A stretch of 64,000 nucleotides of DNA from Sulfurospirillum deleyianum DSM 6946 (GCF_000024885.1 NC_013512.1:1674001-1738000); one strand, 5' to 3'. Positions 665-63,624 are shown, counted from the stretch's first letter. The notes: a model not told the origin generated them from the letters alone. A program made the numbers and translations.

Positions 665-674
665 TTACATGTAA
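665..674. repeat. TTACATGTAA palindrome, intergenic copy
   Basis: One of 28 exact copies of this 10-bp palindrome in the window. This copy sits in the 70-bp gap between the convergent glnA and PBP1A stop codons, 30 bp after the glnA terminator stem. Confidence 0.9.
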
Positions 675-677
675 CCC

Positions 678-2603
678 TTAGAAAATCAAACCGCCCTCTT
701 CTTTAAGCTCTTTATTGCTCGATTTTGGCAGAGGAGAGACATCGGTAAAATACTCCATAACACCATCTATTTTTCGAGCACTGACCCCTTCTGGCATACT
801 AAACTTACGGGTTGTTTCAGGATGTAATTCAAGGTATTTACTCATAAAATGTTTAAACGCAGGAGCTGCCGCACGTCCACCTGTTTCACTGCGTTGCATC
901 GGCGTATTATTATCATTCCCGTACCATGTTAAAACTTCAATATCAGGAGAAAAACCACAAAACCATGCATCGACATTGTTATTGGTTGTTCCTGTCTTTC
1001 CAGCAATTTCAATCCCTGCTACTTGTGCGTTACGTCCAGTTCCTCGATTGACCACCTCTTTGAGCATATCCAGCATCAAAAAACTCTGCTTTGGAGAAGT
1101 TATCTCTGTGTTTTTGGACTCATAGACTCGCTCTTCCCCGTAACGATTGACCACTTTTTTCACCAATAAAGGCTCTACCTTTACCCCATAATTAGGGAAC
1201 ATCGAATAAAAAGAACTAAATTCTAAAGGCGAAATGCCAAAGGTTCCTAGAGCAATAGAAAGATCCATAGAGAGATTTTTAAAACCATCTTTCACAAACT
1301 CTTTATAAACACTATCCAATCCCAATAACGAGAGAAGATTGATGGTTGCGAGGTTGCGAGAATGTACTAACGCTTCTTTGAGGGTAATCAATCCCTCAAA
1401 ATTATTTTCATAGTTTCGAGGTGTCCATGTCTCATCTGTTTCGCTGTTCACATACGTTCGTGAAATATCTGGAATCTCACTTAAAGGAGAGTACCCCCAA
1501 TCTAACGCCTTTTGATATAAAAAAGGCTTAAAACTAGAACCTGGTTGGCGTTTGCTTTGGGTCGCTCGGTTGAAACTGCTTTTTGCATAATCCAATCCCC
1601 CAACCAAAGCCAAAATATTACCTGAGTTATTTTCAACGACCACGATTGCGCCATTGAGTTCTGACGTATCTGTCTTTTTCCCCGCACGAGAGATCATCCC
1701 CTCATAACCCACTTTGAGTGATTCTTGCGCAAGCTGTTGAAGTTTCAAATCCACGCTCGTATAAATCTGATACCCTCCACGCTTAATATCTTCATACTCG
1801 GGTAAAAGCGTTTTAATAACTTCATCCACCACATACGGTGCACGATTGCGAGTGAGAGTTTCATCGTAAACAACAGGGTGTTCCATCATTGCTTTGGTAT
1901 ATTCACCCTCACTAATCCATCCAATCGAATGCATACGATTTAAGACTTGATTGGCTCTGCCCAGTGATAAATCCATATGACGGGTTGGGTCATACGAACT
2001 AGGTGCTTTGGGAAGCCCTACGAGCATCGCAATCTCTTTTAATGTCAGCCTATCCAAAGGCTTTTTAAAATAACCAAGGGCTGCGGTCTTAATCCCATAG
2101 TAGCCATGCCCAAAATAGACATGATTGAAGTAACGCTCTAAAATCTCTTCTTTACTAAGCTCTGCTTCAACCGTGTATGCCAAGACAGCCTCATTAATCT
2201 TTCGTGACAAGGTTTTTTGACGTGTTAAAACCGTATTTTTAATGAGCTGTTGCGTAATCGTACTTGCCCCTTCAACCAATTTCATCGCTTGAATATCTTT
2301 GATAATGGCTCGAAAAATCGCTTCAATATTAATCCCCCCATGTTCAAAAAAAGAGGTGTCCTCCGTCGCGACCAAAGCTTCAATCACACGAGCAGGAATC
2401 TCATCATAAGGCACATATAAACGATGTTCTTCTTCAAAAAGATTTGCCATTAATTCGCCATTTCTATCATAAATCTGCGTCGTAATCTTTGGCTTATAAT
2501 CAATAATTTTATTAGCATCAAAACGTACTTGTGCATATAAAAAGAGTACCGCTAACACTACGGCAAAAATAATCATTGAAAAAATTGTTACTATATATCT
2601 CAC
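678..2603 (-). CDS. pbpA: Penicillin-binding protein 1A, bifunctional transglycosylase/transpeptidase
   Basis: Class A PBP that polymerises lipid II and cross-links peptidoglycan at the outer face of the inner membrane. One N-terminal anchor (residues 4-24) is followed by the GT51 domain with catalytic Glu81 in ATEDTSFFEHGG and the EGASTITQQL motif (111-120). The transpeptidase domain has SSFK (Ser356, Lys359), SRN (415-417) and KTGT (536-539). Length of 641 aa is normal for the family. Its start codon overlaps the upstream ABC gene stop in an ATGA, so translation is probably coupled. bioF followed by PBP1A is also the Helicobacter order. The gene symbol is by analogy to Campylobacter. Confidence 0.95.
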   Translation of the reverse strand: MRYIVTIFSMIIFAVVLAVLFLYAQVRFDANKIIDYKPKITTQIYDRNGELMANLFEEEHRLYVPYDEIPARVIEALVATEDTSFFEHGGINIEAIFRAIIKDIQAMKLVEGASTITQQLIKNTVLTRQKTLSRKINEAVLAYTVEAELSKEEILERYFNHVYFGHGYYGIKTAALGYFKKPLDRLTLKEIAMLVGLPKAPSSYDPTRHMDLSLGRANQVLNRMHSIGWISEGEYTKAMMEHPVVYDETLTRNRAPYVVDEVIKTLLPEYEDIKRGGYQIYTSVDLKLQQLAQESLKVGYEGMISRAGKKTDTSELNGAIVVVENNSGNILALVGGLDYAKSSFNRATQSKRQPGSSFKPFLYQKALDWGYSPLSEIPDISRTYVNSETDETWTPRNYENNFEGLITLKEALVHSRNLATINLLSLLGLDSVYKEFVKDGFKNLSMDLSIALGTFGISPLEFSSFYSMFPNYGVKVEPLLVKKVVNRYGEERVYESKNTEITSPKQSFLMLDMLKEVVNRGTGRNAQVAGIEIAGKTGTTNNNVDAWFCGFSPDIEVLTWYGNDNNTPMQRSETGGRAAAPAFKHFMSKYLELHPETTRKFSMPEGVSARKIDGVMEYFTDVSPLPKSSNKELKEEGGLIF

Positions 2604-3295
2604 GTTCTAAAACTCCTTTGTCTAAATCCTGAGCTTAAAAGCTGCTTCGTATAAGCCTCTTTTGGAGCCACTAAAATCTCTTTTGTTTTTCCTTGCTCAA
2701 CTATTTTCCCTTGCTGAATAATCCCTACCTCATCACAGAGATCTTCCACCGTTGCAATATCATGCGTCACAAATAAAAGATCAAATCCCAATGATCTCTG
2801 TAAGCTTTGAATCAACGAGAGAATCACCCCTTTACTTCCTTCATCCAGCGCCGTAGTCGGCTCATCCAATAACAACAAACGTGGTTTCAAACTTAATGCC
2901 ATAGCGATAATCAACCGCTGTAACTGTCCACCACTAAGCTCAGAAGGAAACCGCTCTAAAAACGAAGCTTCTAAACCAACCATCTCCAAATAAGCAACAC
3001 TGACATCTTTTTCTTGCATAAACTGCTGCCCTATTTTGGTTAAGGGAGAGAGTGCGGTAAAGGGATTTTGAGGAACCAATGCCACACTCTTTCCTCTTTC
3101 AAGGGTATAGGAAGCATCATACTCCAAATGCAGTGTGAGCTCTTTTGGTAACATCCCTAAGAGTGCTTTGAGGGTCAAACTCTTACCACTCCCACTCTCC
3201 CCAATAAAGGCAAAAGTATGCTGAAACGAAAAAGAGATATCAACTAATACTTTCTCGTGACTCTCAAGTTTCAGGCTTTTACATGTAAAGCTCAA
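2600..3295 (-). CDS. ABC transporter ATP-binding protein, oligopeptide/nickel (Dpp/Opp-like) type
   Basis: A single ATP-binding subunit of 231 aa. Walker A GESGSGKS (32-39), Q-loop Gln75 in VPQNPFTALSP, signature LSGGQ (120-124), Walker B LLLLDEP with Asp144-Glu145 and switch His177 are all present, so it should hydrolyse ATP. The NPFTALSP stretch after the Q-loop is typical of the peptide/nickel importer ATPases. No permease or binding protein is adjacent; it sits between bioF and PBP1A with ATGA overlaps on both sides. The substrate cannot be read from the sequence. Codons 3-6 (FTCK) are written by a TTTACATGTAAA palindrome. Confidence 0.85.
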   Translation of the reverse strand: MSFTCKSLKLESHEKVLVDISFSFQHTFAFIGESGSGKSLTLKALLGMLPKELTLHLEYDASYTLERGKSVALVPQNPFTALSPLTKIGQQFMQEKDVSVAYLEMVGLEASFLERFPSELSGGQLQRLIIAMALSLKPRLLLLDEPTTALDEGSKGVILSLIQSLQRSLGFDLLFVTHDIATVEDLCDEVGIIQQGKIVEQGKTKEILVAPKEAYTKQLLSSGFRQRSFRT

Positions 3296-5450: not shown

Positions 5451-7991
5451 TTACAAAAGGGATTTGGCGTATGCCAATGCAGCATTTTTCGCCTCTTCAA
5501 CCCTAGAGGCATCCTTACCTCCAGCTTGTGCGAAATCATCCCTTCCACCACCACCACCACCAACGATAGGGGCAATCTCTTTAATCCATGCTCCCGCTTT
5601 AATTGGTGCATTTTTAACACCTGCGGCAATAAGCACTTTATCCTCTTTAACTTGCAATAATAACACCGCCACAGACTCTTTCTCATTTTTCAAATCATCA
5701 ATCCGTGCTTTAATATCCCCCGCACCTAAAACATCCACAATCAACTCTACACCGTTTACATGTAAAGATTCAACGGCTTTACCTGCTTGAGCATTAAGCG
5801 ACTCTACTTCTGTTTTTAAGCTCTTAATCTCTTCTTTAAGACGGTTAATACCAATCAACGGTTCTTTGTGTTTCACACTCTCTTTAATCGCTTCCATCTC
5901 CGTGCGTAATGCTTGTGCATACGCTAAAGCAGCCCCTCCACAAATCGCTTCAATACGACGAACTCCTGCGCTGACACCACTCTCTTTTAAAATGAAAAAG
6001 CTTCCAATGTTCGCCACATTTTCCACATGCGTTCCACCGCACAGCTCAATACTCGCATCGCCAAAACTCACCACACGCACTTCAGAGCCATATTTTTCAC
6101 CAAAAAGCGCCATAGCTCCGCTTTTTTTTGCCTCTTCAATATTCATCAGTTTTGTCTCACCCGCAACACCACTTGCAATGATGCGATTCACAAAAGCTTC
6201 AATATTTGAAAGCTCTTCATGACTCAAGGCTTTTGGATGGGAGAAGTCAAAACGCAAACGCTCTTTTTCTACCAAACTACCCGCTTGGGCAACATGATCA
6301 CCTAAAATGGTTCGCAAAGCACTATGCAATAAGTGTGTTGCACTGTGATGCTTTTCAATTTCTAAACGAGAAAGATCCACAACAAGTGCTACCTCATCGT
6401 TTACATGTAAAGGTTTTTCAAGCTCTACCAAGGAGAGATTTAAATCAAAAAACTTCTTGGTATCGAGCACTTTACCATACCCTTCAATACTTCCTTCATC
6501 ACCACATTGACCACCACTCATCGCATAAAATGGCGTTTTTTCAAACATGACCCAGCCGTTTTCGTCTAAGCTCTCGACCTCTTTAAAATTTTCATCCAAA
6601 AGGGCTAAAACCTTTGTTTTAACCTCTTTTTGCGTATAGCCTACAAAGGTATTTAAACCAAATTTCTCTAAAAGCGGTTTAAACTCGCCATGCGTTGCTT
6701 TATCGCCACTGCCTTTCCATGAGGCTTTTGAACGTGCTTTTTGTTCTGCCATTAATGCTTCAAACTCCGCTTCATTGACACTTAAACCTTTTTCTCTGAG
6801 CATATCCGCCGTTAAATCGAGTGGAAAACCATAAGTATCGTAAAGTTTAAATGCCACTTCCCCGCTAAACATCGCTTTGGTATTGGGTAGCTCTTTTTCA
6901 AATAACTCTAGCCCTGAAGCAATCGTTGTAAAAAAGCTCTCCTCTTCGTTTTTAATCTGCTCCGCCACACCCTCTTTTTTAGCGACCAAATAAGGGTATT
7001 GTTTGCCCATAAGATCACATAACGTATCTAAGAGTTTGTACATAAAAGGCTCACGAAGTCCTAAGAGATAACCATGACGTACAGCACGGCGTAAAATACG
7101 TCGTAAAACATAACCACGTCCCACACGACCAAAGCTGACTCCTTGTGCCACTAAAAACGCAACAGAGCGAATATGATCAGCAATAACTCGGTAACTGGCT
7201 CCTGTTTTATACGCATAAGCTTTACCGCATAGTTCTGCTACTTTACTCGTCAAAGGGATAAACAACGATGAATCGTAGTTACTAAAAACACCCTCTTGCA
7301 CTGCGGTCACACGCTCCAATCCCATACCTGTATCAATCGAAGGCTTAGGAAGGGGATGTAAATTTCCCTCTTTATCACGTTCATACTGCATAAACACGAG
7401 ATTCCAAATCTCTAAAAAACGATCCCCATCGCCACCCATGTAATCTTCTGGCGTATTAAAATTCTCCGCTCCTTGGTCAATAAAAATCTCACTACAAGGA
7501 CCACAAGGACCAGTATCGCCCATTTGCCAAAAATTGTCTTTATCCCCAAAACGCATGATACGAGAGGCATCAATATGCTTTATCCATATCTCCTCCGCCT
7601 CATCATCGCTCTCATGCACCGTTACCCAAAGCTTCTCTTTAGGCAGTTTTAACACTTCAGTCACAAATTCCCACGCATGAGAAATCGCATCCTCTTTAAA
7701 ATAATCTCCAAAAGAAAAGTTACCCAACATCTCAAAAAAAGTATGATGACGTGCGGTATAACCGACGTTATCTAAATCATTATGCTTACCACCCGCACGA
7801 ATACATGTCTGACATGTCGTTGCACGTGGAGGGTTAGGTCTGGGCACTTCACCTGTAAAAACACTCTTAAAAGGAACCATTCCCGCATTGGTAAACAGTA
7901 ACGTCGCATCATCAGGAACCAGTGGTGAACTCTCAATGACCTTATGACCTTTTTGTTCAAAAAACTTTAAAAACTCAGCTCTAACATCCAT
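5451..7991 (-). CDS. alaS: Alanyl-tRNA synthetase
   Basis: Class II synthetase charging tRNA-Ala. At 846 aa it has the normal architecture: catalytic core from residue 1 ([29 protein letters not shown]), tRNA-recognition region, editing domain with zinc-binding HHSATHLLH and ELCGGTHV, and a C-terminal domain with six glycines then RDDFAQAGG. It is the first gene of a minus-strand unit (alaS, membrane protein, maf, bioF, ABC ATPase, PBP1A) with gaps of 3 nt or overlaps. Two copies of TTTACATGTAAA lie in the coding sequence (5755-5766 and 6400-6411), both read as Leu-His-Val-Asn. Confidence 0.98.
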
Positions 7992-8054: not shown

Positions 8055-10007
8055 TTAAAGCTTACAGCTCTCATTTAAACGATACCCAACAACCCACCAT
8101 CCAAGCGTTAGAATAATAGCGCCTAAAAAGCCATTGAAGGTCAATAAACAAAAAAGCCCGATAACCATCGCAATCATTCCTAAGATATAGCTTCCTGAAA
8201 GCACCGCAAAAAAGGCAATCACACTCCCTGCGATACCGCTATAATTGAGATAAATCACCTTCCCTAAGATAGCTCTGAATTGACATATGGGCAACAAAGG
8301 CTCTGTGGCACACACACTCACCAGCGACTCTTTAACATAAATGCCCTCTTTGATAAGCACAAATACAATAGCACTCGCAATCAGCACTAAAAAACTTTTC
8401 GTAATGCCACACAATTTGGCACGAGATAGCCACAACGTAGATCCAAACACAACAACTAAAACCACCCAATTCAAAGCAAATCCATTACGAGCGCTCTCTT
8501 GTTGTAGCACCACCAGCGCACACACAAATAAGCTCAATCCACTCATTTTTTCCATCATCCCATTGAGCGCCAAACGCTCCGTACTCATATAGGAGAGCGC
8601 ATAACTCATGGCAATAATCGCTAACACACCCAACTCAAAATTAAGATAACGTCCATCAAAGGCTAAAGAGAGTGCCATAATCAACACAATGCTAACGCTC
8701 AATAAATGCAACACATCTTCCCAAAAGGTTTCTCCTTTGGGGGCACTCAATGTTATCACTTGCATACATCGCATCATTGAACCACGCATTGAAATCTCAT
8801 CGGTCATCACATATTGCACCACTTTAAGCCACAAGATAAAGGCAACACTTAAACAAACAATCGCCCATGCGTACTCTAAGGTATTGCGAGAAACAATCCA
8901 ATACATATTGGCTTGCCACGCAAGTGCGACAGCTCCACCAAACAAAGAAATAAACCATATGGGTGCTTTTTTACAGCTACATGTAGGCAGTCCCCACAGC
9001 CAAATCAATCCGACAAGAGACAACATAAAACTTCCTAAAAACAGCCAAAGGGCATTGGGAAAATTAGAGACAAATCCATGCAAAATATGCTTATCCATAC
9101 GGTTAGCATCAAAAAGTCCCCAATATCCGCCAACGGCTCCCTCACTCAAACGCTTCCACGGCTGGTCAAACGCTTCGATAAAGTTGTACTTCCAACCATT
9201 CTCTTCTGCCATTTTGACAAAACCACGTGTGAAAATAGCTTGATTGAGCGCACTTGGATACGCACCTTCTCGCATTCGCCCCTCACTTGGCCACCCTGTT
9301 TCCCCAATGACAATCTCTTTATCATTAATTTTCTGTGTCATTTCATCATAAATATTTTTTACATGTAAAAGGGCTTTATCCACGCTAATGGGCTGATCTT
9401 CCCAATAAGGCAAAATATGAATTGTCACACGATCCACTGAGGGAGCAATTTCAGGATGTTTATTCCAAAACTCCCAAACATCAGCATACGTTACCTTCAT
9501 ATCAGGCAAAGCACGTTTGACTTGTTCAATATACCCTACCAACTGAGAAGCACTCACATCACGGCGTAAAAGCGCTTCATTCCCCACCACAACAGTTTCA
9601 ACACTTTCTCGATACTCTTTGGCTAAAGCAATAACAGTATCAATCTCTTTTTGCGTCATTTTTGCATCATTACTGATCCAAGCACCTAGCCATAATTTCA
9701 GCCCATGTTTGCGCGCGATTTCAGGAAGTGCCTCAAGCCCAACACTCGAATAGGTACGAATACAGTTGGTCAAAGTCGAAAGTTTTGCCAAATCCCCTTC
9801 CATCTGCTCTTTAGAAGGTCGAAATCCTTTAGCGATATCAAACGGTGAGTCATCTTTCCCAAAAGGGGCGTAAGAGAGACATTGTAACTTTACATCATCA
9901 GGTAAGGTGATCAAATCATTGGAGGGCTTTGCCATCCAAAACCAAAACAACCCCAACGAGAGAAACATGGTAATGTAAAAAAGAACGATTTTAACGGCAT
10001 GACTCAT
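8055..10007 (-). CDS. GH17-family beta-glucan-active membrane protein
   Basis: 650 aa. An N-terminal membrane anchor (residues 5-25) leads into an extracytoplasmic GH17-like domain (about 40-320) with both expected acids: acid/base Glu144 in VVVGNEALL and nucleophile Glu236 in VIGETGWPSEG. The block EAFDQPWK...GGYWGLFD is shared with the GH17-GT2 fusion at 52575-55109. Residues 330-645 are almost all hydrophobic and form roughly ten TM helices with no recognisable glycosyltransferase. GH17 enzymes hydrolyse or transglycosylate beta-1,3-glucans; the bradyrhizobial Ndv proteins are the closest functional model I know. A role in trimming or branching a glucan made by the 52575 product is inferred. 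Own promoter at 10037-10042. Confidence 0.82.
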   Translation of the reverse strand: MSHAVKIVLFYITMFLSLGLFWFWMAKPSNDLITLPDDVKLQCLSYAPFGKDDSPFDIAKGFRPSKEQMEGDLAKLSTLTNCIRTYSSVGLEALPEIARKHGLKLWLGAWISNDAKMTQKEIDTVIALAKEYRESVETVVVGNEALLRRDVSASQLVGYIEQVKRALPDMKVTYADVWEFWNKHPEIAPSVDRVTIHILPYWEDQPISVDKALLHVKNIYDEMTQKINDKEIVIGETGWPSEGRMREGAYPSALNQAIFTRGFVKMAEENGWKYNFIEAFDQPWKRLSEGAVGGYWGLFDANRMDKHILHGFVSNFPNALWLFLGSFMLSLVGLIWLWGLPTCSCKKAPIWFISLFGGAVALAWQANMYWIVSRNTLEYAWAIVCLSVAFILWLKVVQYVMTDEISMRGSMMRCMQVITLSAPKGETFWEDVLHLLSVSIVLIMALSLAFDGRYLNFELGVLAIIAMSYALSYMSTERLALNGMMEKMSGLSLFVCALVVLQQESARNGFALNWVVLVVVFGSTLWLSRAKLCGITKSFLVLIASAIVFVLIKEGIYVKESLVSVCATEPLLPICQFRAILGKVIYLNYSGIAGSVIAFFAVLSGSYILGMIAMVIGLFCLLTFNGFLGAIILTLGWWVVGYRLNESCKL

Positions 10008-10063: not shown

Positions 10064-10073
10064 TTACATGTAA
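10064..10073. repeat. TTACATGTAA palindrome, intergenic copy
   Basis: Exact copy between the divergent GH17 gene and the 59-aa gene. It lies just upstream of the minus-strand -10 box, where a bound protein could affect either promoter. Confidence 0.9.
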
Positions 10074-10303: not shown

Positions 10304-11242
10304 ATGGCACAAAAAGCGTTAATACTGCTCAATATGGGAGGTCCAAACAACCTCGATGAAGTGAAACTTTTTTTAACCAATATGTTCAATGATAAAAATA
10401 TTATTACAACCAAAAGTGCTTTATTACGTCGTTTTATTGCGTTTATGATTACTGCGTCACGGACAAAAAAAGCACAAGCTAATTATGCCAAACTAGGCGG
10501 TAAATCCCCATTGGTTGGCTATACACAAAAGCTGGTGGATAAACTCCAAAAAGCCCTTCCTTCTGTTCATGTCGATTTTGCGATGCGTTACACGCCCCCT
10601 TTTTGTGAAGAGGTTATTCGTAAACTCCTTGAGAAAGAGATTCATGAAGTCACTCTCTTACCGCTCTATCCACACTACTCTTCAACCACAACCAAATCAT
10701 CCGTTGAAGATTTTATGGAAGTCGCACATCTTCTTGGCTACCATGGAAAAATCAACGTGATTGATCGTTTTTATGAGGATGCCTCGTATAACCAACTTCT
10801 GATTCAAAAAATCAAAGAAACGTTAGGCAAACACGATGCTTCAAACTTTGAATTGATTTTTTCAGCCCACTCACTTCCTCAAAAAATCATCGAAAAAGGC
10901 GATCCTTACCAAAGAGAAATTGAGTTACATGTAAAGATTTTAAGTGAACTATTGGTGCAGCAAGGTATTCATTTTCACGGCATTCATCTTGCCTACCAAT
11001 CCAAACTAGGACCTCTAAAATGGTTAGAACCCTCCTTAGAGCAAAAACTCTCATCCCTTGAAAACAAAAATGCTCTGATTGTTCCTATTGCGTTTACGAT
11101 TGATAATTCAGAAACAGAGTTTGAACTGAGTATGGAGTATGCAGAAGTAGCGCACCATTTAGGCTATGAGCATTATCTGGTTGCGAAATGTCCGAATGAT
11201 GACGATGCTTTTGTCAGTGCAATTAAGGGACTTTGTTCGTAG
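10304..11242 (+). CDS. hemH: Ferrochelatase
   Basis: Inserts Fe(II) into protoporphyrin IX, the last step of protohaem synthesis, at the inner membrane face. 312 aa with LLNMGGPNNLDEVKLFL at the N-terminus, the YTPP block, catalytic-site FSAHSLPQ, YQSKLGPLKWLEP and the acidic FTIDNSETEFELSMEY region, all standard for the family. Translation is probably coupled to the 59-aa gene immediately upstream. The last 20 bp overlap the end of the convergent ftsI gene. One TTACATGTAA (10925-10934) is read as Leu-His-Val-Lys. Confidence 0.97.
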   Translation: MAQKALILLNMGGPNNLDEVKLFLTNMFNDKNIITTKSALLRRFIAFMITASRTKKAQANYAKLGGKSPLVGYTQKLVDKLQKALPSVHVDFAMRYTPPFCEEVIRKLLEKEIHEVTLLPLYPHYSSTTTKSSVEDFMEVAHLLGYHGKINVIDRFYEDASYNQLLIQKIKETLGKHDASNFELIFSAHSLPQKIIEKGDPYQREIELHVKILSELLVQQGIHFHGIHLAYQSKLGPLKWLEPSLEQKLSSLENKNALIVPIAFTIDNSETEFELSMEYAEVAHHLGYEHYLVAKCPNDDDAFVSAIKGLCS

Positions 11243-14296: not shown

Positions 14297-14306
14297 TTAC
14301 ATGTAA
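14297..14306. repeat. TTACATGTAA palindrome in the flgB leader
   Basis: Exact copy between the sigma-54 promoter and the flgB start, about 10 bp before the ATG. It overlaps the region where the ribosome-binding site should be. Confidence 0.9.
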
Positions 14307-15738: not shown

Positions 15739-16763
15739 TAGCAATTACAGGAGGAGGAACTGGAGGGCACTTAGCGATTGCAAAAGCCATCAAAGAAGAA
15801 CTCAATCGCCGTGGCATAAAACCCATTTACATTGGTTCTACCTCAGGTCAAGATAAAAGCTGGTTTGAAAACGATGACGGATTTGAAGCAAGCTATTTTT
15901 TAGAGAGTCAAGGCATTGTCAACAAAAAGGGTCTCACGAAACTCTTTTCACTCTTAAATATCATCCGTTCTGCTTTTACATGTAAAAAACTTTTTGCCAA
16001 ACATCACATTCATGCAATCTTTTCTGTAGGAGGCTATTCTGCAGCCCCTGCTTCTATCGGAGCGCTTCTTTTAGGACGACCTCTTTATATCCATGAACAA
16101 AATGCTATTCATGGTAAACTTAATGCTGTGTTGAAACCTTTTGCAAAAGCTTTTTTTAGCTCGTATGATACACAAGCAACCTACACAAACTACCCTGTAA
16201 ATCAAATTTTTTTCACACTTGCAAAAGAACATCACACCCTTCAAACGATTATCTTCTTAGGAGGAAGTCAAGGTGCAGCATTTATCAACCAACTGGCGCT
16301 AAAAATGGCAAAAATACTTCATAAGGATGGCATTTCTATTATTCATCAAACAGGAATCAAAGAGTTTGCAACAATCCAAGATTTTTATAAACAAGAAGGT
16401 ATTCCCGCAGATGTGTTCGCTTTTTCTAAAGAAATAGCCAACAAATTACGTCATGCCGATTTTGCAATCAGCCGTTCAGGCGCAAGTACGTTGTGGGAAC
16501 TGTGTGCGGCAAAAATTCCAGCTCTTTTTATTCCCTATCCACATGCAGCAGCTAATCATCAATATTTTAACGCAAAAGTGCTTGAAGAGAAAAACTTAGC
16601 ACTGCTTCTGGAACAAAAAGAGTTATATGATGTTGAAGAAGTCTATCAAAAAATAAAAACACTAGATTTAAATAAAATTTCTCAAGAACTTGATACTATG
16701 ATTCAGCCCAATGGTGCTAAGGAAATTGTTGATACTATATTACAAACATTACCCAAGGAGTAA
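15735..16763 (+). CDS. murG: UDP-GlcNAc:lipid I N-acetylglucosaminyltransferase MurG
   Basis: Peripheral inner-membrane GT28 enzyme that makes lipid II from lipid I. 342 aa. Glycine loops ITGGGTGGHLAIAK at the N-terminus and FLGGSQGA in the second domain, HEQNAIHGKLN, and the donor-site SRSGASTLWE are clear. It starts in the ATGA overlap with ftsW and is followed by the GNAT gene after 2 nt. A TTTACATGTAAA at 15975-15986 encodes Phe-Thr-Cys-Lys. Confidence 0.96.
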   Translation: MIAITGGGTGGHLAIAKAIKEELNRRGIKPIYIGSTSGQDKSWFENDDGFEASYFLESQGIVNKKGLTKLFSLLNIIRSAFTCKKLFAKHHIHAIFSVGGYSAAPASIGALLLGRPLYIHEQNAIHGKLNAVLKPFAKAFFSSYDTQATYTNYPVNQIFFTLAKEHHTLQTIIFLGGSQGAAFINQLALKMAKILHKDGISIIHQTGIKEFATIQDFYKQEGIPADVFAFSKEIANKLRHADFAISRSGASTLWELCAAKIPALFIPYPHAAANHQYFNAKVLEEKNLALLLEQKELYDVEEVYQKIKTLDLNKISQELDTMIQPNGAKEIVDTILQTLPKE

Positions 16764-17344: not shown

Positions 17345-17463
17345 AACTGGCAGCGACCTACGTTTCCATCCCAGTAAGGGAGAGTATTATCGGCGATGAA
17401 GAGCTTAGCTTCCTGGTTCGAAATGGGACAGGGCGTTTCCTCTTCTCTAGAGCCACCAGAATC
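17345..17463 (-). rRNA. rrf: 5S ribosomal RNA, copy 1
   Basis: The minus strand carries the conserved core CCCATTTCGAACCAGGAAGC and the complementary ends CTGGTGGC...GCTGCCAG. Boundaries are approximate to a few bases. Confidence 0.9.
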
Positions 17464-17599: not shown

Positions 17600-20512
<2,913 letters not shown>

Positions 20513-20746: not shown

Positions 20747-20756
20747 TTACATGTAA
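20747..20756. repeat. TTACATGTAA palindrome in the tRNA-Ala/23S spacer, copy 1
   Basis: The only place where the palindrome enters the rRNA operon: 54 bp downstream of tRNA-Ala in transcript order. The mature rRNA genes contain none. Confidence 0.9.
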
Positions 20757-26900: not shown

Positions 26901-26910
26901 TTACATGTAA
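26901..26910. repeat. TTACATGTAA palindrome in the tRNA-Ala/23S spacer, copy 2
   Basis: Duplicate of the 20747 copy inside the second operon. Confidence 0.9.
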
Positions 26911-38818: not shown

Positions 38819-38828
38819 TTACATGTAA
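38819..38828. repeat. TTACATGTAA palindrome between trpB and glnD
   Basis: Extended form TTTACATGTAAA at 38818-38829, about 11 bp upstream of the trpB start and next to its ribosome-binding site, in the divergent trpB/glnD region. Confidence 0.9.
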
Positions 38829-47170: not shown

Positions 47171-47187
47171 TCTTTACATGTAAAGAT
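47170..47187. repeat. 18-bp perfect palindrome centred on TTACATGTAA, between convergent genes
   Basis: ATCTTTACATGTAAAGAT lies in the 29-bp gap between the EAL-HDOD gene and the AEC transporter. It could act as a weak bidirectional terminator or as a protein site. It has no T-tract. Confidence 0.8.
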
Positions 47188-52574: not shown

Positions 52575-55109
52575 TTGAAATACTTTAAATATGTCCTACT
52601 TTCAATGATTTTAAGCTCTCTTGTACACGTTTTTTTATGGACAAGAGGTGGCGATAAAATCGTTACATCTCCTCAAATTGGAGACAAGATAGAATCCCTC
52701 TCTTACACACCATATCGGGGCTTTGAAAAAGCACCTAAAAGCGATGAAGAGATTGCGCAAGATATGAAAACCGTTGAAAATATTGCACGTAAAGTCAGAA
52801 CTTACGCCATTGATGATGCCAAACGGGTTTTGAGCAATGTGGACGATACCAAGCTTAAAGTTGATATTGGACTATGGCTTTCAGGCGATAAAGGAGCAAA
52901 CGAATATGAAATGGAGAAGCTTTTTGAATTAACCAAATTTTATTATCCTCGCATTGCTTCTATCATTGTAGGAAACGAGGTACTTTTACGTGCTGATTTA
53001 ACACCTGAAGAGCTGATGGAGTACATCGACCGTGTTTCCAAACGTACCCGTATTCCTGTCACCACAGCAGAAGTTCAACATGTCTGGCTTACCAATAAAG
53101 AATTGGCTAACCATGTTGATTTTATCAATGTCCATATTCTTCCTTACTGGGAGAAAATCCCTATAGAGCAAACCCTTGCTTTTGCCAAAGAAAAATACGA
53201 CGCCATCGCTGAGATGTATCCTAAAAAGCCCATTACTATCGGGGAGTTTGGTTGGCCTAGCAGTGGATACAACAACGAAAAAGCTGAAGCCACACTCACC
53301 AACCAAATTGCTGCTATTACAGGCTTTTTGGAAATGGCACGTGAACTGAAATGGAGTTATAACATCGTTGAAGCATTTGATCAGCCATGGAAAGGGGTTC
53401 ATGAGGGAAGTGTAGGACCATACTGGGGGCTTTTTGATATTAACAAACAACCTAAATTTCACTTTGTCAAGCAGACGATTTTAAATCCTCTCTGGCGCTA
53501 TCAAATGGCAGCCTCTGTTTTCTTTGGTCTGCTCCTCACTTTCTTTGGACTTCGCAACCAACGGGTCAACTTTGCTCATGCGCTTACCTATGGTTTTGCA
53601 GCGCAAGCGATGGGCTTTGGTATTGCTATGGCAGCCACCTATCCGTTTATTTACTACATGAATTTTGGTATGTGGGTCATGTGGACCATGGGAATTTTTC
53701 TAATGATTCCTTTGGTGATTATCACCCTTGCAAAGATTAATGAACTCTTTAAATGTACCCTAGGCATTGCTCCTAAACGCTTAGCTCCTCTGAATCTCAA
53801 ATCGGATCATGTTCCTTTTGTCTCTATTCATGTTCCCGCCTATAAAGAACAACCTCATGTTCTTATTGAGACCCTAGATTCACTTGCAAAACTTAAATAC
53901 ACCAATTACGAAGTTTTAGTGGTCATTAACAACACACCTGAGGAGTTTTACTGGAAGCCGATTGAAGAGCATTGTGCAAAACTAGGTGAAAAATTTGTCT
54001 TTTTAAACATTACATGTAAAGGGTTTAAAGCAGGTGCGCTCAACGAAGCACTTAAATACACCCATGAAAAAGCAGAAATTTTAGCGGTCATTGACGCAGA
54101 TTATGTTGTGGGTGATAACTGGCTGATTGATTTGGTTCCTTTGTTTGATGACCCAAAAGTTGCCCTTGTTCAAGCGCCGCAAGACCACAGAGATGGCAAT
54201 GAATCACTGATAAAACAAGCCATGAATGCCGAATATGCAGGATTTTTTGATATCGGAATGGTGGAGCGAAATGAAGAAAATGCCATTGTAGCGCATGGAA
54301 CGATGCTTATGGCACGCCTTTCCGCTATGCATGAAGTGGGCGATTGGACAACCTATACCATCGTGGAAGATTCCGAGCTGGGTCTTCGTCTTTTTGAGGC
54401 AGGATACACCGCACACTACACGAACAGGCGCTATGGCTGGGGATTATTACCTGACACTGTGGAAGCCTTCCGAACACAACGCCATCGCTGGGCATACGGA
54501 GCTATTCAAATTTTAAAACGTCATTGGCGTCATTTTATGCCTTCATCCAAAACGTTAACGCCCTACCAAAAATATCATTTTGTAGCGGGTTGGTTCTTCT
54601 GGCTCTCCGATGCCTTTGGTGCTATGACCGCATTTTTAAATATTTTTTGGGTTCCCTTTATTATTTTTGTAGGCGTCACCATCCCAACGCTTCCTTTAAC
54701 ACTACCGATTGTCGTCGCCTTTTTGGTCAACATTTTACATGCCTTTATTTTGTATCGCACACGGGTTAAAATGGGCATTAAAGAGACTGTTTTAAGTGCG
54801 ATTGCCTCTATGAGTTTGCAGTTGGTTATCTTTAAAGCCGTCTATGATGGATTTGTTAAAGATGGTCTTCCTTTTAAACGAACTGAAAAAGGTGGCAATA
54901 CTAAAAAAACCAATACCAATCCCATCCGTCATGAGATGATTTTAGCAAGTTTGCTGACCATCGCCTTTTTTGCGCTCTATTTCACCAACTTTACACGCAT
55001 TACAGAGATTTATGTTTTTGCCTTTACGTTGCTGATTCAAAGTATCCCTTATTACTCAGCGATTATCTTACGTATTATCGAGCTTCAATCCCTTAAACCT
55101 AAAAAGTAG
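52575..55109 (+). CDS. GH17-GT2 fusion: putative processive beta-glucan synthase with glucanase/transglycosylase domain
   Basis: 844 aa from TTG 52575, chosen for GGAG 7 nt upstream; the frame stays open to TTG 52515. After an N-terminal anchor comes a GH17 domain with Glu135 (IIVGNEVLL) and Glu224 (TIGEFGWPSSG), then helices (about 310-390), then a GT2 domain with Asp507/Asp509 (VIDADYVVG), TIVEDSEL (about 595) and QRHRW (635), the motifs of processive synthases, and four to five C-terminal helices. This architecture is similar in parts to rhizobial/pseudomonad Ndv glucan synthases. It probably makes beta-1,3 or 1,3/1,6-glucan and remodels it outside the membrane. No PilZ domain is visible. 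Shares its GH17 block with the protein at 8055. Confidence 0.85.
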   Translation: MKYFKYVLLSMILSSLVHVFLWTRGGDKIVTSPQIGDKIESLSYTPYRGFEKAPKSDEEIAQDMKTVENIARKVRTYAIDDAKRVLSNVDDTKLKVDIGLWLSGDKGANEYEMEKLFELTKFYYPRIASIIVGNEVLLRADLTPEELMEYIDRVSKRTRIPVTTAEVQHVWLTNKELANHVDFINVHILPYWEKIPIEQTLAFAKEKYDAIAEMYPKKPITIGEFGWPSSGYNNEKAEATLTNQIAAITGFLEMARELKWSYNIVEAFDQPWKGVHEGSVGPYWGLFDINKQPKFHFVKQTILNPLWRYQMAASVFFGLLLTFFGLRNQRVNFAHALTYGFAAQAMGFGIAMAATYPFIYYMNFGMWVMWTMGIFLMIPLVIITLAKINELFKCTLGIAPKRLAPLNLKSDHVPFVSIHVPAYKEQPHVLIETLDSLAKLKYTNYEVLVVINNTPEEFYWKPIEEHCAKLGEKFVFLNITCKGFKAGALNEALKYTHEKAEILAVIDADYVVGDNWLIDLVPLFDDPKVALVQAPQDHRDGNESLIKQAMNAEYAGFFDIGMVERNEENAIVAHGTMLMARLSAMHEVGDWTTYTIVEDSELGLRLFEAGYTAHYTNRRYGWGLLPDTVEAFRTQRHRWAYGAIQILKRHWRHFMPSSKTLTPYQKYHFVAGWFFWLSDAFGAMTAFLNIFWVPFIIFVGVTIPTLPLTLPIVVAFLVNILHAFILYRTRVKMGIKETVLSAIASMSLQLVIFKAVYDGFVKDGLPFKRTEKGGNTKKTNTNPIRHEMILASLLTIAFFALYFTNFTRITEIYVFAFTLLIQSIPYYSAIILRIIELQSLKPKK

Positions 55110-55260: not shown

Positions 55261-56997
55261 ATGGCAGATTTAATCTATCGTGTCAATATGACCAATCTTA
55301 GCTTTAAAATCGAAGAAGTGCCAGCAGAATGGCTAGGTCTTGGTGGTCGAGCCTTAACCTCAACCATTGTTGCCAAAGAAGTTGATCCTGAGTGTCACCC
55401 TTTAGGACCTAATAATAAACTCGTTTTTGCACCAGGACTACTCTCAGGAACCAGCGCCTCTAACTCAGGTCGTAACTCCTGTGGGGCGAAAAGCCCTTTA
55501 ACCGGTGGTATTAAAGAATCAAACGTGGGTGGTACGAGTGCTGGTATTATGTCAAAGCTTGGCGTTAAAGCGTTGATTATTGAAGGCTTGCCTAAAAATG
55601 AAGAGATGTTTTACCAATTACATGTAACCAAAAATAACGTTGAATTTATTGAGGTTCCTGAGCTTGTTGGACTTGATAACTACGCTGTATTGGATGCGAT
55701 GGCAGCAAAATATGACAAGAAAGTAGCGGTGATGACCATCGGTCGCGTGGGTGAAATGCGTATGAATCTTGCCAATATCTCCGTTAAAGACCCTAGTGGA
55801 AAACTCAGAAGTCACGGACGTGGAGGGCTTGGTGCCGTTATGGGTTCGAAAAAGATTAAATGTATCACCGTTGATGCAGAAAACTACAAAGAAGTGACTA
55901 TCGCTGATCCTGAAAAATTTAAAGAAGCGAGTAAAATCTTTACCAAAGCGCTTCAAGAAAATCCTATCAGCGGTCAAGGGCTCCCTGCATTTGGAACCAA
56001 TGTCCTTGTCAATATCCTCAATGAAGCAGGTGGTCTTCCTACCCGTAACTTTAGAGCGGGAAATTGGGAATTTGCTGAAAATATCTCTGGTGAAACGATG
56101 GCAGAAAACATCAAAGCACGAGGTGGAAAAACAACACACGGTTGTCACGCAGGTTGTGTCATTCAATGTTCACAAGTCTATAACGACAAAGATGGCAACT
56201 ACCTCACTTCAGGATTTGAGTACGAAACCATTTGGGCACTGGGTGCTAACTTTGGCATTAAAGATTTAGATTTAATCGCCAAAATGGATGGCTTGATGGA
56301 TGATTTAGGCGTAGATTCTATCGAAGCAAGTGTTACATTAGGTCTGGCGGTTGATGCGGGAATTTTAGCCTATGGCGATGGCGAAAAAGCCTACGAGCTC
56401 TTATCGAAAGATTTACCCAATGGAACCCCCATAGGTCGCATCATTGGCAGTGGGACACATATTCTTGGTAAAATTTATGGTTTGGTGCGTGTTCCAACCG
56501 TTAAAGGACAAGGTATTCCTGCGTATGAACCCCGTGCCGTTAAAGGTCAAGGCATCACCTATGCGACTTCCACGATGGGAGCAGATCACACTTCAGGATA
56601 TGCTGTTGCTACGAACATTCTTAAGAGTGGTGGGTATGTTGATCCGCTTAAAAAAGAGGGACAAGTTGAACTTTCTCGAAACCTTCAAATTGCAACCGCA
56701 GCGGTTGATAGTACAGGTATGTGTATCTTCGTTGCCTTCCCAGCCCTTGATGATCCAAAATGTCTCCCTGCCTTAGTCGATATGATTAACGCACGTTTTG
56801 GCGCTAAGCTTACGATTGATGATGTCGTCAATTTAGGTAAGACTATCCTTAAAAGAGAACATGAATTTAATATCAAAGCAGGTCTTAACAGCGCTGAGGA
56901 TAGGCTACCTGAGTTTATGAAATACGAAACCCTTCCTCCGCACAATGTGGTTTGGGATTTTACAGGAGAAGAGATTGATGCATTCTGGAATTTTTAA
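55261..56997 (+). CDS. Aldehyde:ferredoxin oxidoreductase-family tungsten enzyme
   Basis: 578 aa, whole-length AOR family. Oxidises aldehydes, or in reverse reduces acids, with a tungsten bis-pyranopterin and one [4Fe-4S] cluster. Visible parts are the N-terminal LGLGGRALTS and GRNSCGAKSPLTGGIKESNVGG (pterin region, quoted as family block), cluster cysteines Cys295, Cys299 and Cys303 (GCHAGCVIQC) with distal Cys488 (STGMC), and MGADHTSGYA. AAGGAG 7 nt upstream makes the start clear. A MoaD-like gene overlaps the stop. No ferredoxin or electron-transfer subunit is adjacent, so the electron partner must be elsewhere. The aldehyde is unknown. Confidence 0.93.
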   Translation: MADLIYRVNMTNLSFKIEEVPAEWLGLGGRALTSTIVAKEVDPECHPLGPNNKLVFAPGLLSGTSASNSGRNSCGAKSPLTGGIKESNVGGTSAGIMSKLGVKALIIEGLPKNEEMFYQLHVTKNNVEFIEVPELVGLDNYAVLDAMAAKYDKKVAVMTIGRVGEMRMNLANISVKDPSGKLRSHGRGGLGAVMGSKKIKCITVDAENYKEVTIADPEKFKEASKIFTKALQENPISGQGLPAFGTNVLVNILNEAGGLPTRNFRAGNWEFAENISGETMAENIKARGGKTTHGCHAGCVIQCSQVYNDKDGNYLTSGFEYETIWALGANFGIKDLDLIAKMDGLMDDLGVDSIEASVTLGLAVDAGILAYGDGEKAYELLSKDLPNGTPIGRIIGSGTHILGKIYGLVRVPTVKGQGIPAYEPRAVKGQGITYATSTMGADHTSGYAVATNILKSGGYVDPLKKEGQVELSRNLQIATAAVDSTGMCIFVAFPALDDPKCLPALVDMINARFGAKLTIDDVVNLGKTILKREHEFNIKAGLNSAEDRLPEFMKYETLPPHNVVWDFTGEEIDAFWNF

Positions 56998-57556: not shown

Positions 57557-58351
57557 ATGCAGTGTTTAGAATTTTTACGTACTCACCTTATTGAGGGTTT
57601 TTTACCACTTCAAACCAGTTTTGAAGCCATGAAACACTTTACATGTAACTTTCGTGATGTTGAGCAATGCGCTCTTGAAAACAACATTTTGCCGTTACGA
57701 TACAAGCGAAATCAAAAAACATTCTCAACGCAAGATCAATATACCCTTTTTAAAGCTAAAGTGCTGATTGTAGGGTGTGGAGGATTGGGTGGATTTGTCA
57801 GTGAAATGCTCGCACGCATTGGTGTAGGAGAGCTTATTTTGTGCGATGGAGACGTTTTTGAAGAGCACAATCTCAACCGCCAAAACTTTTCATCCATTAA
57901 AACACTCGGACGCAACAAAGCCGAGGTACTCAAAGAAAAACTTGAAGAGATAAATCCAGCGTTACATGTAAAAACAAAAACAACCTTTTTACGCCTTCCA
58001 GAAGAGCGTGAACTGCTAGAAAAAGTCGATGTGATTGTCGATGCGTTAGACAATCCCAACCTTAAATGCCTTCTTGCTTTATGTGCACAAGCCATCAATA
58101 AACCTTTTGTTCATGCCGCTATTGGTGGATATTACAGCCAATTTGCAACCCAAACAACCTTAGAGCATCTCTACGCTCAAGAAGGCGATGGTATAGAGAC
58201 GCAATTAGGCAATCCTTCGTTTACGGTCTGCTTTGCTGCCTCAATTCAAAGCGTAGAAGTGGTAAAATTACTTTTAAAGAAACCTCACTTAACACACTTT
58301 TTAATGGGAGATTTATGGGAATATGAAATGACCCATCTTTCATTACGCTAA
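57557..58351 (+). CDS. ThiF/MoeB/HesA-family adenylyltransferase (E1-like)
   Basis: 264 aa. ATP-dependent adenylation of the C-terminus of a MoaD/ThiS-like protein. The nucleotide-binding part is clear: VLIVGCGGLGGFVSEMLA, LCDGDVFEEHNLNRQNF and VDVIVDALDN. The N-terminal 60 residues are extra compared with MoeB. The paired CxxC zinc motifs of MoeB are not visible. Its likely partners are the two MoaD-like proteins next door. Two TTACATGTAA palindromes lie 323 bp apart within it (Phe-Thr-Cys-Asn and Leu-His-Val-Lys). Confidence 0.86.
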   Translation: MQCLEFLRTHLIEGFLPLQTSFEAMKHFTCNFRDVEQCALENNILPLRYKRNQKTFSTQDQYTLFKAKVLIVGCGGLGGFVSEMLARIGVGELILCDGDVFEEHNLNRQNFSSIKTLGRNKAEVLKEKLEEINPALHVKTKTTFLRLPEERELLEKVDVIVDALDNPNLKCLLALCAQAINKPFVHAAIGGYYSQFATQTTLEHLYAQEGDGIETQLGNPSFTVCFAASIQSVEVVKLLLKKPHLTHFLMGDLWEYEMTHLSLR

Positions 58352-59897: not shown

Positions 59898-59927
59898 CAA
59901 AAGGGCTTTACATGTAAAGCCCTTTTG
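59898..59927. terminator. 30-bp perfect palindrome, bidirectional terminator centred on TTACATGTAA
   Basis: Every base from 59898 to 59927 pairs symmetrically around the palindrome at 59908-59917. The arms contain AAAAGGGC/GCCCTTTT, giving a GC-containing stem with T-runs on both strands. It lies between the convergent small Cys-rich gene and dapD. Confidence 0.85.
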
Positions 59928-62394: not shown

Positions 62395-62464
62395 TTTGAC
62401 CTCACATGCTTTTTAATAATGGCGGAATTTAACACAAAAAAGATAAAAAAAAGCTTTCAAAATG

Positions 62465-62470
62465 TATAAT
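62465..62470 (+). promoter_or_regulatory. -10 box of ispDF
   Basis: Exact TATAAT 30 bp before the TTG start of ispDF, preceded directly by TG. Confidence 0.6.
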
Positions 62471-62499
62471 ATCGTAACACTTCAGAAAAAGGACAAAGT

Positions 62500-63624
62500 T
62501 TGCCCGAAATAACCCTTATTATGTTGGGAGCTGGAAGTTCATCACGCTTTAATCAACGTGTTAAAAAGCAGTGGTTACGCATTGAAGAGACTCCATTATG
62601 GCTTTTTGCTACCCAAACACTTCAAACGCTTTTCCCTTTTACACAGACCATTGTTACCACGACACCTGATGAGATGTTTTACGCACAAAAATTTAGCCCA
62701 CATATCACCTTCGTTGAAGGAGGAGACACCAGACAAGACTCTTTGCAAAAAGCCCTTTTACATGTAAAGACTCCGTACGTTTTAGTCAGTGACATTGCAC
62801 GAGCGTGCATTGACCAAGCAATGCTGGTTCGCCTTTTGGCTGAAATGGAAAACGCCGATATCGTTGTGCCGTATTTACCGGTGGTTGATACCGTTGTTTA
62901 TGAAGAGAGTACCATCAATCGTGATGCCATCAAGCTCATACAAACACCTCAACTCTCCCAAACAGCATCTTTAAAAAAAGCCCTTCAAACAGGCGTTATT
63001 TATACAGATGATAGCAGTGCCATTAAAGCTATGGGTGGCAAGGTTGCTTATGTTTTAGGTCATGAGAAAGCCAAAAAGCTTACATGTAAAGACGATATTC
63101 CAACCATGGATTGCCTTCAAGCGCCTTCCAACAGAGCCTTAGTAGGATACGGATTTGATGTCCATGCGTACGAAGAAGGCAAAGCGATGATGTTAGGGGG
63201 TATTCACGTTCACGATACCATCGGCTTTAAAGCACATTCTGATGGCGATGTAGCGATTCACGCACTGATTGACGCTCTCTTAGGGGCGGCTGGTGCTGGA
63301 GACATTGGAGAGCTCTTTCCCGATAATGACGCCCGCTATAAAGATATTGATTCTAAAGTATTACTGAAGGAGGTGTGTACCTTTTTGCGCAAAGTAGGAT
63401 TTGAAATTACCCATTGTGATATCGCCATTATGGCAGAATTTCCACGCCTCAGCCCGTTTAAGGATGCTATACGCTTTTGCCTCGCAGACATCATGGAATT
63501 AAATCCTGTTCATGTCAATATCAAAGCGACCACAACAGAAAAACTAGGATTTGTGGGACGCAAAGAAGGTGTCGCAGCCAGTGCGACCGCTACATTACAC
63601 TATTATGATTGGACACATGTATGA
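62500..63624 (+). CDS. ispDF: Bifunctional IspD-IspF enzyme of the MEP pathway
   Basis: 374 aa, fused as in alpha- and epsilon-type proteobacteria. IspD part (1 to about 205): LIMLGAGSSSRFNQRVKKQW and VSDIARACI, cytidylyl transfer to MEP. IspF part (about 213 to the end): YGFDVHAYEEG, MLGGIHV, AHSDGDVAIHALIDALLGAAGAGDIG and the C-terminal TTEKLGFVGRKEG, making the 2,4-cyclodiphosphate. The start is TTG with AAAAGGAC upstream. It overlaps the regulator downstream by ATGA. Two TTACATGTAA copies lie 322 bp apart (62758, 63080). Confidence 0.96.
   Translation: MPEITLIMLGAGSSSRFNQRVKKQWLRIEETPLWLFATQTLQTLFPFTQTIVTTTPDEMFYAQKFSPHITFVEGGDTRQDSLQKALLHVKTPYVLVSDIARACIDQAMLVRLLAEMENADIVVPYLPVVDTVVYEESTINRDAIKLIQTPQLSQTASLKKALQTGVIYTDDSSAIKAMGGKVAYVLGHEKAKKLTCKDDIPTMDCLQAPSNRALVGYGFDVHAYEEGKAMMLGGIHVHDTIGFKAHSDGDVAIHALIDALLGAAGAGDIGELFPDNDARYKDIDSKVLLKEVCTFLRKVGFEITHCDIAIMAEFPRLSPFKDAIRFCLADIMELNPVHVNIKATTTEKLGFVGRKEGVAASATATLHYYDWTHV

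What the first reader, a model, noticed from the sequence alone, without database searches (positions are those of the whole stretch)
665..63089. TTACATGTAA, a massively over-represented palindrome of unknown function
I count 28 exact copies (one is the rRNA-operon duplicate): 665, 3279, 5756, 6401, 9359, 10064, 10925, 14297, 15976, 20747, 26901, 32755, 33483, 37095, 37596, 38819, 39883, 43806, 44025, 47174, 52455, 54010, 55618, 57639, 57962, 59908, 62758, 63080. About half extend to TTTACATGTAAA. With independent bases at roughly 40% GC, about 0.2 copies are expected in 64 kb, so the excess is over 100-fold. Copies are read in all three frames (Leu-His-Val, Thr-Cys, Tyr-Met-stop) and also lie in gaps, leaders and terminators, so protein sequence does not explain them. 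They occur on average every 2 kb, often as pairs 200-650 bp apart. Near misses are rare (36726, 8977). Candidates are a nucleoid- or chromosome-organising site, a methylation or restriction-avoidance site (core ACATGT/CATG), a DNA-uptake sequence (comEA and a pseudopilin are present), or a HIP1-like selfish palindrome.
Basis: partly seen in the sequence, partly recalled or inferred. Interest (0 to 1): 0.9.

Follow-up and report, generated by a model that had tools for sequence, protein, structure and literature searches.

The report
Genome-wide palindrome with phased bendable arms
A ten-letter DNA palindrome is planted about once every 2,000 letters throughout the genomes of Sulfurospirillum and some relatives, is preserved at matching places between species, and sits at the centre of roughly 200 letters of rhythmically bendable DNA, so an unidentified protein very probably recognises it, perhaps as a 'self' tag for DNA uptake or as a chromosome-folding site.

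Summary
In detail: exactly 28 TTACATGTAA at the stated coordinates (0.13 expected), 1,099 in the 2.306-Mb genome (reversed control 3), and 840-1,500 in most congeners. Other Campylobacterales have none, except a few species of one other family. It is not protein-coding, rRNA or composition: sites lie in all frames, are 3-4-fold enriched outside ORFs, and stay perfect in orthologues far more often than control 10-mers (e.g. 12/14 against 20%). New here: (1) dialects (CTACATGTAG in relatives); (2) erosion in two separate clades, with near-misses at all positions and conservation at background; (3) A/T content oscillating with an ~11.2-bp period, phased to the dyad, for at least 86 and up to ~125 bp on both sides (z = 25; controls near zero), the signature of bent or wrapped DNA; (4) an orphan NlaIII/IceA-type MTase, predicted CATG-specific (the core), absent from all four eroded genomes but also from some intact ones. 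Best reading: a bend-assisted recognition site of an unidentified dimeric protein, spread as a self-DNA tag (uptake signal, about 0.42), or a DNA-wrapping nucleoid site (about 0.33). A HIP-like class outside cyanobacteria; function untested.

The parts
665..674 (.). TTACATGTAA site, intergenic
3279..3288 (.). TTACATGTAA site, in ORF (phase 1)
5756..5765 (.). TTACATGTAA site, in ORF (phase 0, Leu-His-Val)
6401..6410 (.). TTACATGTAA site, in ORF (phase 0)
9359..9368 (.). TTACATGTAA site, in ORF (phase 0)
10064..10073 (.). TTACATGTAA site, intergenic, divergent genes
10925..10934 (.). TTACATGTAA site, in ORF (phase 0)
14297..14306 (.). TTACATGTAA site, intergenic
15976..15985 (.). TTACATGTAA site, in ORF (phase 1)
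20747..20756 (.). TTACATGTAA site in the 16S-23S spacer of the first rRNA operon
26901..26910 (.). TTACATGTAA site in the 16S-23S spacer of the second, identical rRNA operon
32755..32764 (.). TTACATGTAA site, in ORF (phase 1)
33483..33492 (.). TTACATGTAA site, in ORF (phase 0), near its 3' end
37095..37104 (.). TTACATGTAA site, in ORF (phase 0)
37596..37605 (.). TTACATGTAA site forming the last codons of an ORF (Tyr-Met-stop)
38819..38828 (.). TTACATGTAA site, in ORF (phase 0)
39883..39892 (.). TTACATGTAA site, in ORF (phase 1)
43806..43815 (.). TTACATGTAA site, in ORF (phase 0)
44025..44034 (.). TTACATGTAA site, in ORF (phase 0)
47174..47183 (.). TTACATGTAA site, convergent intergenic
52455..52464 (.). 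TTACATGTAA site forming the last codons of an ORF (Tyr-Met-stop)
54010..54019 (.). TTACATGTAA site, in ORF (phase 1)
55618..55627 (.). TTACATGTAA site, in ORF (phase 0)
57639..57648 (.). TTACATGTAA site, in ORF (phase 1)
57962..57971 (.). TTACATGTAA site, in ORF (phase 0)
59908..59917 (.). TTACATGTAA site, convergent intergenic, centre of the longer palindrome GGGCTTTACATGTAAAGCCC
62758..62767 (.). TTACATGTAA site, in ORF (phase 0)
63080..63089 (.). TTACATGTAA site, in ORF (phase 1)

Best explanation
SHOWN: TTACATGTAA is a genome-wide, actively maintained recognition element of about 10 invariant bp (core ACATGT, then TA, then the outer T/A), with a weaker symmetric extension CTT..AAG, at the centre of at least +-86 bp (up to about +-125 bp) of DNA whose A/T content is phased to the dyad every ~11.2 bp. 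INFERRED: a dimeric protein or symmetric complex reads the palindrome and needs or profits from easy bending of the flanks. INFERRED, most likely of the open readings: the element is a self-DNA tag, that is, a palindromic DNA uptake signal of the naturally competent ancestor of this family, accumulated by uptake-biased recombination (molecular drive). In most lineages its CATG core would also be N6-adenine methylated by an orphan NlaIII/IceA-type methyltransferase, by analogy with CtsM methylation-gated uptake in Campylobacter jejuni.
For: Density about 0.47/kb and even from origin to terminus. Observed/expected ratio at zero mismatches (RepSeq 169) is like the H. influenzae uptake sequence (183) and below N. 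gonorrhoeae (392) (PMC1939737). 32% of sites lie in the ~10% non-coding DNA, densest between convergent genes, a distribution familiar from uptake sequences (general knowledge). Dialects: CTACATGTAG 117-225 copies in relatives that have few TTACATGTAA, as in Neisseriaceae and Pasteurellaceae (PMC12616744). Orthologous conservation far above control. Dispensable: eroded in two separate clades. Helically phased AT blocks beside the core are known from the Pasteurellaceae uptake sequence (PMC12616744). Competence channel ComEC is present in 41 of 44 family genomes and a pseudopilin gene lies in the window. Orphan D12 MTase in most motif-rich genomes, predicted CATG-specific because homologues adjoin ICEA-family (PF05315) endonucleases; it is cleanly missing from its slot, with neighbours present, in all four eroded genomes. 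CtsM precedent: C. jejuni imports only DNA methylated at the palindromic motif RAATTY (PMC10046745).
Against: No known uptake sequence is palindromic to my knowledge. Arms are phased on both sides of the same sites with no sign of one-sidedness and reach much further than the two one-sided AT blocks of the USS. ComEC is also intact in the eroded genomes G009, G010 and G020, so loss of competence does not explain erosion. The MTase is absent from G017, G052, G048 and G056, whose sites are not eroded where sampled, so methylation cannot be obligatory; in G017 the two genes flanking the MTase slot are missing too, so a gap is possible there. One-mismatch forms are less enriched (RepSeq 0.58) than for uptake sequences (2.0-4.8). 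No reader protein identified, and no transformation data for Sulfurospirillum.
Confidence: 0.42

Rival explanations
1. Chromosome-architecture site: a dedicated symmetric protein (or a gyrase-like enzyme) wraps or loops about 150-250 bp centred on each palindrome, anchoring or relaxing supercoils about every 2 kb.
For: Palindrome plus symmetric, dyad-phased A/T arms of at least +-86 bp, period 11.1-11.3 bp, AA/TT in phase and GC in antiphase, z=25, also present in other genera (z=9.5) and in the window alone (z=7.8); ACATGT outside TACATGTA, CCATGG, GATC and AAGCTT are flat or weak. E. coli gyrase cleavage sites have a symmetric 130-bp motif with 10.75-bp GC periodicity in the arms (PMC6379681). 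Sites are under-dispersed at the 20-kb scale in two genomes and densest between convergent genes, where positive supercoils would meet.
Against: The function is dispensable: two clades lost the sites, whereas gyrase is essential. The E. coli gyrase motif is degenerate, not a fixed 10-mer, and its periodic arms end near 65 bp, while these reach 110-125 bp. Dialects and patchy distribution are unusual for a housekeeping site. No origin-terminus gradient.
Confidence: 0.33
2. HIP1-type by-product of methylation and repair: the CATG-specific MTase and an unknown repair or recombination process convert near-sites into perfect sites, with no separate function.
For: Same class of phenomenon as cyanobacterial HIPs, where an MTase specific for part of the palindrome is always found (PMC4390886). 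Orphan CATG-type MTase present in most motif-rich genomes, apparently acquired more than once, and absent in all four eroded genomes. Near-misses concentrate at the outermost base, as Elhai reports for HIP1.
Against: MTase missing in four genomes with maintained sites and present in G050, which lacks the motif. CATG not in TACATGTA shows no phased arms, and a repair by-product gives no reason for phased arms out to 100 bp.
Confidence: 0.14
3. Regulon-like or terminator function: operator of a transcription factor or a terminator stem.
For: 3-4-fold enrichment outside ORFs, and some sites are the centre of longer palindromes such as GGGCTTTACATGTAAAGCCC at 59908.
Against: 68% of sites are inside ORFs, spread over the whole gene length; about 1,100 evenly spread sites; phased arms in coding sites as well.
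Confidence: 0.05

Closest known systems
HIP1 and alternate highly iterated palindromes of cyanobacteria (Elhai 2015, PMC4390886)
   Same: Short palindrome with enormous over-representation, mostly in genes, near-misses mainly at the outermost base, alternate palindromes in relatives, MTase matching the core.
   Different: AT-rich CATG core, different phylum, MTase not always present, dyad-phased bendable arms of about 100 bp on each side (not examined for HIP1 in the sources I read).
USS of Pasteurellaceae / DUS of Neisseriaceae (PMC1939737, PMC12616744)
   Same: Density, over-representation at zero mismatches, dialects between relatives, bias to non-coding DNA, AT-rich blocks in helical phase with the core (USS).
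   Different: Palindromic, arms symmetric and much longer, one-mismatch forms hardly enriched, no uptake data.
CtsM/RAATTY methylation-gated DNA uptake in Campylobacter jejuni (PMC10046745)
   Same: Same phylum, orphan adenine MTase, palindromic methylated signal.
   Different: RAATTY is short and abundant (about 28,000 per genome in C. coli, PMC8627207); homology of the D12 MTase to CtsM was not tested; uptake here is hypothetical.
E. coli DNA gyrase motif / strong gyrase sites (PMC6379681)
   Same: Symmetric centre with arms whose G+C content is phased every ~11 bp.
   Different: Gyrase motif is degenerate and about 130 bp long; here a fixed 10-mer, arms up to about 250 bp in all, and dispensable.
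NlaIII / IceA1 (CATG) restriction-modification systems
   Same: The orphan D12 MTase is a relative of MTases that adjoin ICEA-family endonucleases.
   Different: No endonuclease next to it in S. deleyianum, and the longer palindrome is enriched, not avoided.

Membership tests
Highly iterated palindrome (HIP) class | Short palindrome over-represented at about 0.5-2 per kb genome-wide, in coding and non-coding DNA | tested here: met
   1,099 copies in 2.306 Mb, 68% inside ORFs
Highly iterated palindrome (HIP) class | Every genome with the palindrome has an MTase specific for part of it | tested here: not met
   D12 CATG-type MTase in 33 of 44 family genomes by protein search (a few of these only weak or fragmentary hits); absent in G017, G052, G048 and G056 with maintained sites. 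A different CATG MTase there cannot be excluded.
Highly iterated palindrome (HIP) class | Methylation of the core in vivo | not testable with these tools
   No methylome held; specificity inferred from family neighbours
DNA uptake sequence (DUS/USS) | Preferential uptake of DNA that carries the word | not testable with these tools
   No transformation data
DNA uptake sequence (DUS/USS) | Over-representation that falls gradually with mismatch load (1- and 2-mismatch forms enriched) | tested here: not met
   RepSeq 169, 0.58, -0.41 at loads 0, 1, 2 against 183, 2.0, 0.22 in H. influenzae; with a Markov model load 1 is 3.9x and load 2 is 1.0x
DNA uptake sequence (DUS/USS) | Competence machinery present | tested here: met
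   ComEC in 41 of 44 genomes; only this component was searched for, and eroded genomes have it too
DNA uptake sequence (DUS/USS) | Dialects among related genera | tested here: met
   CTACATGTAG in g19, G051 and G056
Strong gyrase site | Symmetric arms with ~10.75-bp G+C periodicity over about 17-65 bp from the centre | tested here: inconclusive
   Periodic arms found, but period 11.1-11.3 bp and range 9-125 bp
Strong gyrase site | Gyrase cleavage at the centre | not testable with these tools
   No Topo-Seq data
NlaIII/IceA restriction-modification | Cognate endonuclease beside the MTase | tested here: not met
   No endonuclease-like neighbour at the S. deleyianum MTase locus by inspection of the adjacent ORFs

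The most novel reading that the evidence does not exclude
A sequence-programmed bacterial chromatin: about 1,100 palindrome-centred, dyad-phased segments of roughly 170-250 bp, together covering perhaps 8-12% of the chromosome and imposed on coding sequence too, around each of which an unidentified symmetric complex wraps or loops DNA; the array can evolve dialects and can be lost altogether.
Probability: 0.28. Interest if true: 0.93.

Novelty: new variant of a known kind. Interest (0 to 1): 0.82.

Why it matters
Highly iterated palindromes have had no accepted function since HIP1 was described. This case adds what HIP1 lacked: long dyad-phased bendable arms that point to a bent or wrapped nucleoprotein complex, per-site conservation between species, dialects, and two natural losses with close relatives as controls. 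That makes the function directly testable by comparing G009/G020 with G012/G013 and by pull-down with core-only and full-arm probes. If it is an uptake signal, it is the first palindromic one I know of and links methylation-gated uptake with uptake sequences in one phylum; if it is a wrapping site, it is a new kind of bacterial chromosome organisation.

Tried and rejected
Chance, composition or sibling palindromes: rejected. Protein-coding cause: rejected, since phases 0/1/2 hold 107/38/4 sites and 32% lie outside ORFs. Restriction avoidance: wrong sign. Origin-terminus or replichore gradient: none seen. Beta-class N6/N4 MTase (PF01555): none in G000. C5 MTase (PF00145): no consistent pattern; absent in G016 and G015, which have over 1,200 sites. 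D12 MTase as an obligatory partner: rejected by G017, G052, G048 and G056, unless a non-homologous CATG MTase or, for G017, an assembly gap intervenes. Loss of ComEC as the cause of erosion: rejected. ATCATGAT of G050 as another dialect: enriched about 4-fold but without phased arms, so not counted. One-sided arms as in the USS: not seen. Phage carriage: viral contigs with the 14-mer are mostly single, chance-like hits; three loci have 3 or more copies at over 0.3/kb and were not examined. Literature: no paper in the library describes TTACATGTAA as an iterated bacterial element.
Full report
OBSERVATION. The genome that holds the window (one contig of 2,306,351 bp; the size matches S. deleyianum DSM 6946 from memory) has 1,099 copies; the same word read backwards has 3. 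Twenty 20-kb samples spread round the chromosome plus the window (464 kb) hold 219 sites, 6-15 per 20 kb, with no gradient between the two GC-skew switch points. At the 20-kb scale counts are more even than Poisson in this genome (variance/mean 0.41, P = 0.007) and in G013 (0.30, P = 0.013), but not below 10 kb in this genome.

ANATOMY OF THE SITE. The flank composition extends the palindrome symmetrically: T/A next to the 10-mer in 72-73%, then C/G (49%), with A (T on the other side) avoided. One-mismatch words are enriched only at the outermost base (CTACATGTAA 17 against 0.3, GTACATGTAA 10, ATACATGTAA 5 on both strands); the ACATGT core tolerates nothing detectable, and two-mismatch words are at expectation. 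This is the profile of direct readout by a highly specific dimer. 32% of sites lie outside ORFs that cover 90% of the DNA; convergent intergenic regions are densest (24 sites in 7.1 kb against 14 in 12.9 kb for ++ pairs). Inside ORFs the phases are 107/38/4, and sites are spread along the gene.

PHASED ARMS. The A/T content of the flanks, averaged over 448-457 sites from maintained members of the genus, oscillates in phase with the dyad: maxima near 12, 23.5, 34.5, 45, 56, 68 and 78 bp on each side. The amplitude at 9-86 bp is 0.054 against a null mean of 0.004 (z = 25). With sites closer than 160 bp to another site removed, each 22-bp window exceeds the 99% null out to about 130 bp, the best period is 11.2-11.3 bp, and AA/TT carries the signal with GC, CG and GG/CC in antiphase. 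Both coding and non-coding sites show it, the window alone shows it (28 sites, z = 7.8), and so do other genera (z = 9.5), the CTACATGTAG dialect genomes (25 sites, z = 3.0) and remnants in eroded genomes (z = 6.0). ACATGT outside TACATGTA, CCATGG and GATC show nothing; TTTAAA and TCATGA are weak (0.010 and 0.014). Both arms of the same sites contribute, with a slight positive correlation near the centre and no sign of one-sided use. The per-site effect is a statistical preference (about 0.6 s.d. per arm), not an absolute rule. The straightforward reading is DNA selected, or driven, to bend or wrap symmetrically about the palindrome; that step is inference.

MAINTENANCE. Between maintained species with 75-94% DNA identity in the aligned stretches, 64-100% of sites are perfect in the orthologue, against 10-68% of control 10-mers (S. 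deleyianum to G014 12/14 against 20%, P = 3e-7; to G013 7/11 against 10%, P = 3e-5; to G017 6/8 against 10%; G019 to G008 20/21 against 43%). Into G020 it is 1/8 and into G009 0/6, which is background; into G010 it is 3/7. The numbers per pair are small, but agree over ten pairs.

DISTRIBUTION, DIALECTS, EROSION. In 44 genomes of the family the counts run from 6 to 1,496. Genus g19 and G056 carry CTACATGTAG instead (117-225 copies in six of them). G009 (49), G011 (168), G020 (238) and G010 (412) have near-misses in numbers that rival or exceed the perfect sites (275, 370, 396 and 596 one-mismatch words before background), spread over inner positions too (small samples), whereas maintained genomes have them almost only at the outer base. 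In a tree of proteins around comEC these four form two separate clades, (G009, G020) next to motif-rich G012/G013, and (G010, G011). Across 298 genomes of the phylum TACATGTA is otherwise at background, except some members of family f17 (G227 848, G174 611, G162 608, G240 221). So the system is patchy and can be lost.

THE METHYLTRANSFERASE. An orphan D12-class adenine MTase (S. deleyianum genome 2136383-2137351, minus strand, outside the window) is present in most motif-rich genomes at a conserved place. Relatives sharing 47-49% identity with it sit directly downstream of ICEA-family (PF05315) proteins in Helicobacter magdeburgensis and Nicoletella. IceA1 is an NlaIII isoschizomer (general knowledge), so the predicted target is CATG, the centre of the palindrome. 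In G009, G020, G010 and G011 the slot and its neighbours are present and the MTase is absent. A tree suggests several acquisitions of this MTase type among motif-bearing lineages. But G017, G052, G048 and G056 lack it and keep their sites, and G050 has it without the motif. The association is therefore real but not obligatory; with two erosion events it could be coincidence. In G017 the flanking TAT protein and response regulator are missing as well, so an assembly gap is possible.

MECHANISM. Shown: specificity, conservation, dialects, loss, phased arms, a frequent MTase matching the core. Inferred: a symmetric reader protein and bending. Open: why the cell wants about 1,100 of them. Uptake tag (0.42): explains density, dialects, dispensability, bias to non-coding DNA, AT blocks in phase, and the MTase by analogy with CtsM; it does not naturally explain the palindrome, the long two-sided arms and the missing one-mismatch enrichment. 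Wrapping site (0.33): explains palindrome, arms, evenness and convergent bias; it does not naturally explain dispensability and dialects. Methylation-repair by-product as proposed for HIP1 (0.14): explains the MTase, not the arms.

NOVELTY. No paper found in the library describes this element (the library lacks most subscription journals). As a phenomenon it belongs with HIPs and uptake sequences; the dyad-phased arms and the two documented erosions make it a new variant rather than another member.

Noticed in passing
G162, G174, G227, G240, G207 (family f17): TACATGTA is also highly over-represented (608, 611, 848, 221 and 99 copies) in a few species of another Campylobacterales family, while their congeners are at background.
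   Followed up: partly
L197, L229 (records titled Sulfurimonas): Two Sulfurimonas-titled loci with the orphan-type D12 MTase beside tsaD also carry 3-4 TACATGTA in 9 kb, whereas 57 non-Campylobacterota MTase loci (461 kb) hold 1 (reversed control 8).
   Followed up: partly
L221 and L251/G024: The D12 MTase of MAG 'Sulfurimonas sp. KA11' is almost identical to that of 'Sulfurospirillum sp. Kmv13': recent transfer or a misnamed MAG.
   Followed up: no
L061, L065-L069, L284 (G050): Another CATG-core palindrome, ATCATGAT, is about 4-fold over-represented in G050, which lacks TACATGTA; it has no phased arms.
   Followed up: partly
window 17345-28715: Two tandem rRNA operons, 6,154 bp apart, identical in score and layout, each with a TTACATGTAA in the 16S-23S spacer next to tRNA genes.
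   Followed up: partly
window 29051-29731 (-): Pseudopilin-like ORF (KKAFTMLELVFVIVVVGIMAYVAVSS), a possible competence component.
   Followed up: no
G009:C1:67005-68975: One 686-aa open frame matches both a C5 DNA methylase (PF00145) and a D12 adenine methylase (PF02086): an apparent fused two-methylase protein in an eroded genome.
   Followed up: no
flanks of TTACATGTAA, seventh base from the dyad: G on one side is anticorrelated with G on the other (odds ratio 0.51, p = 0.001), although the average preference is symmetric.
   Followed up: no
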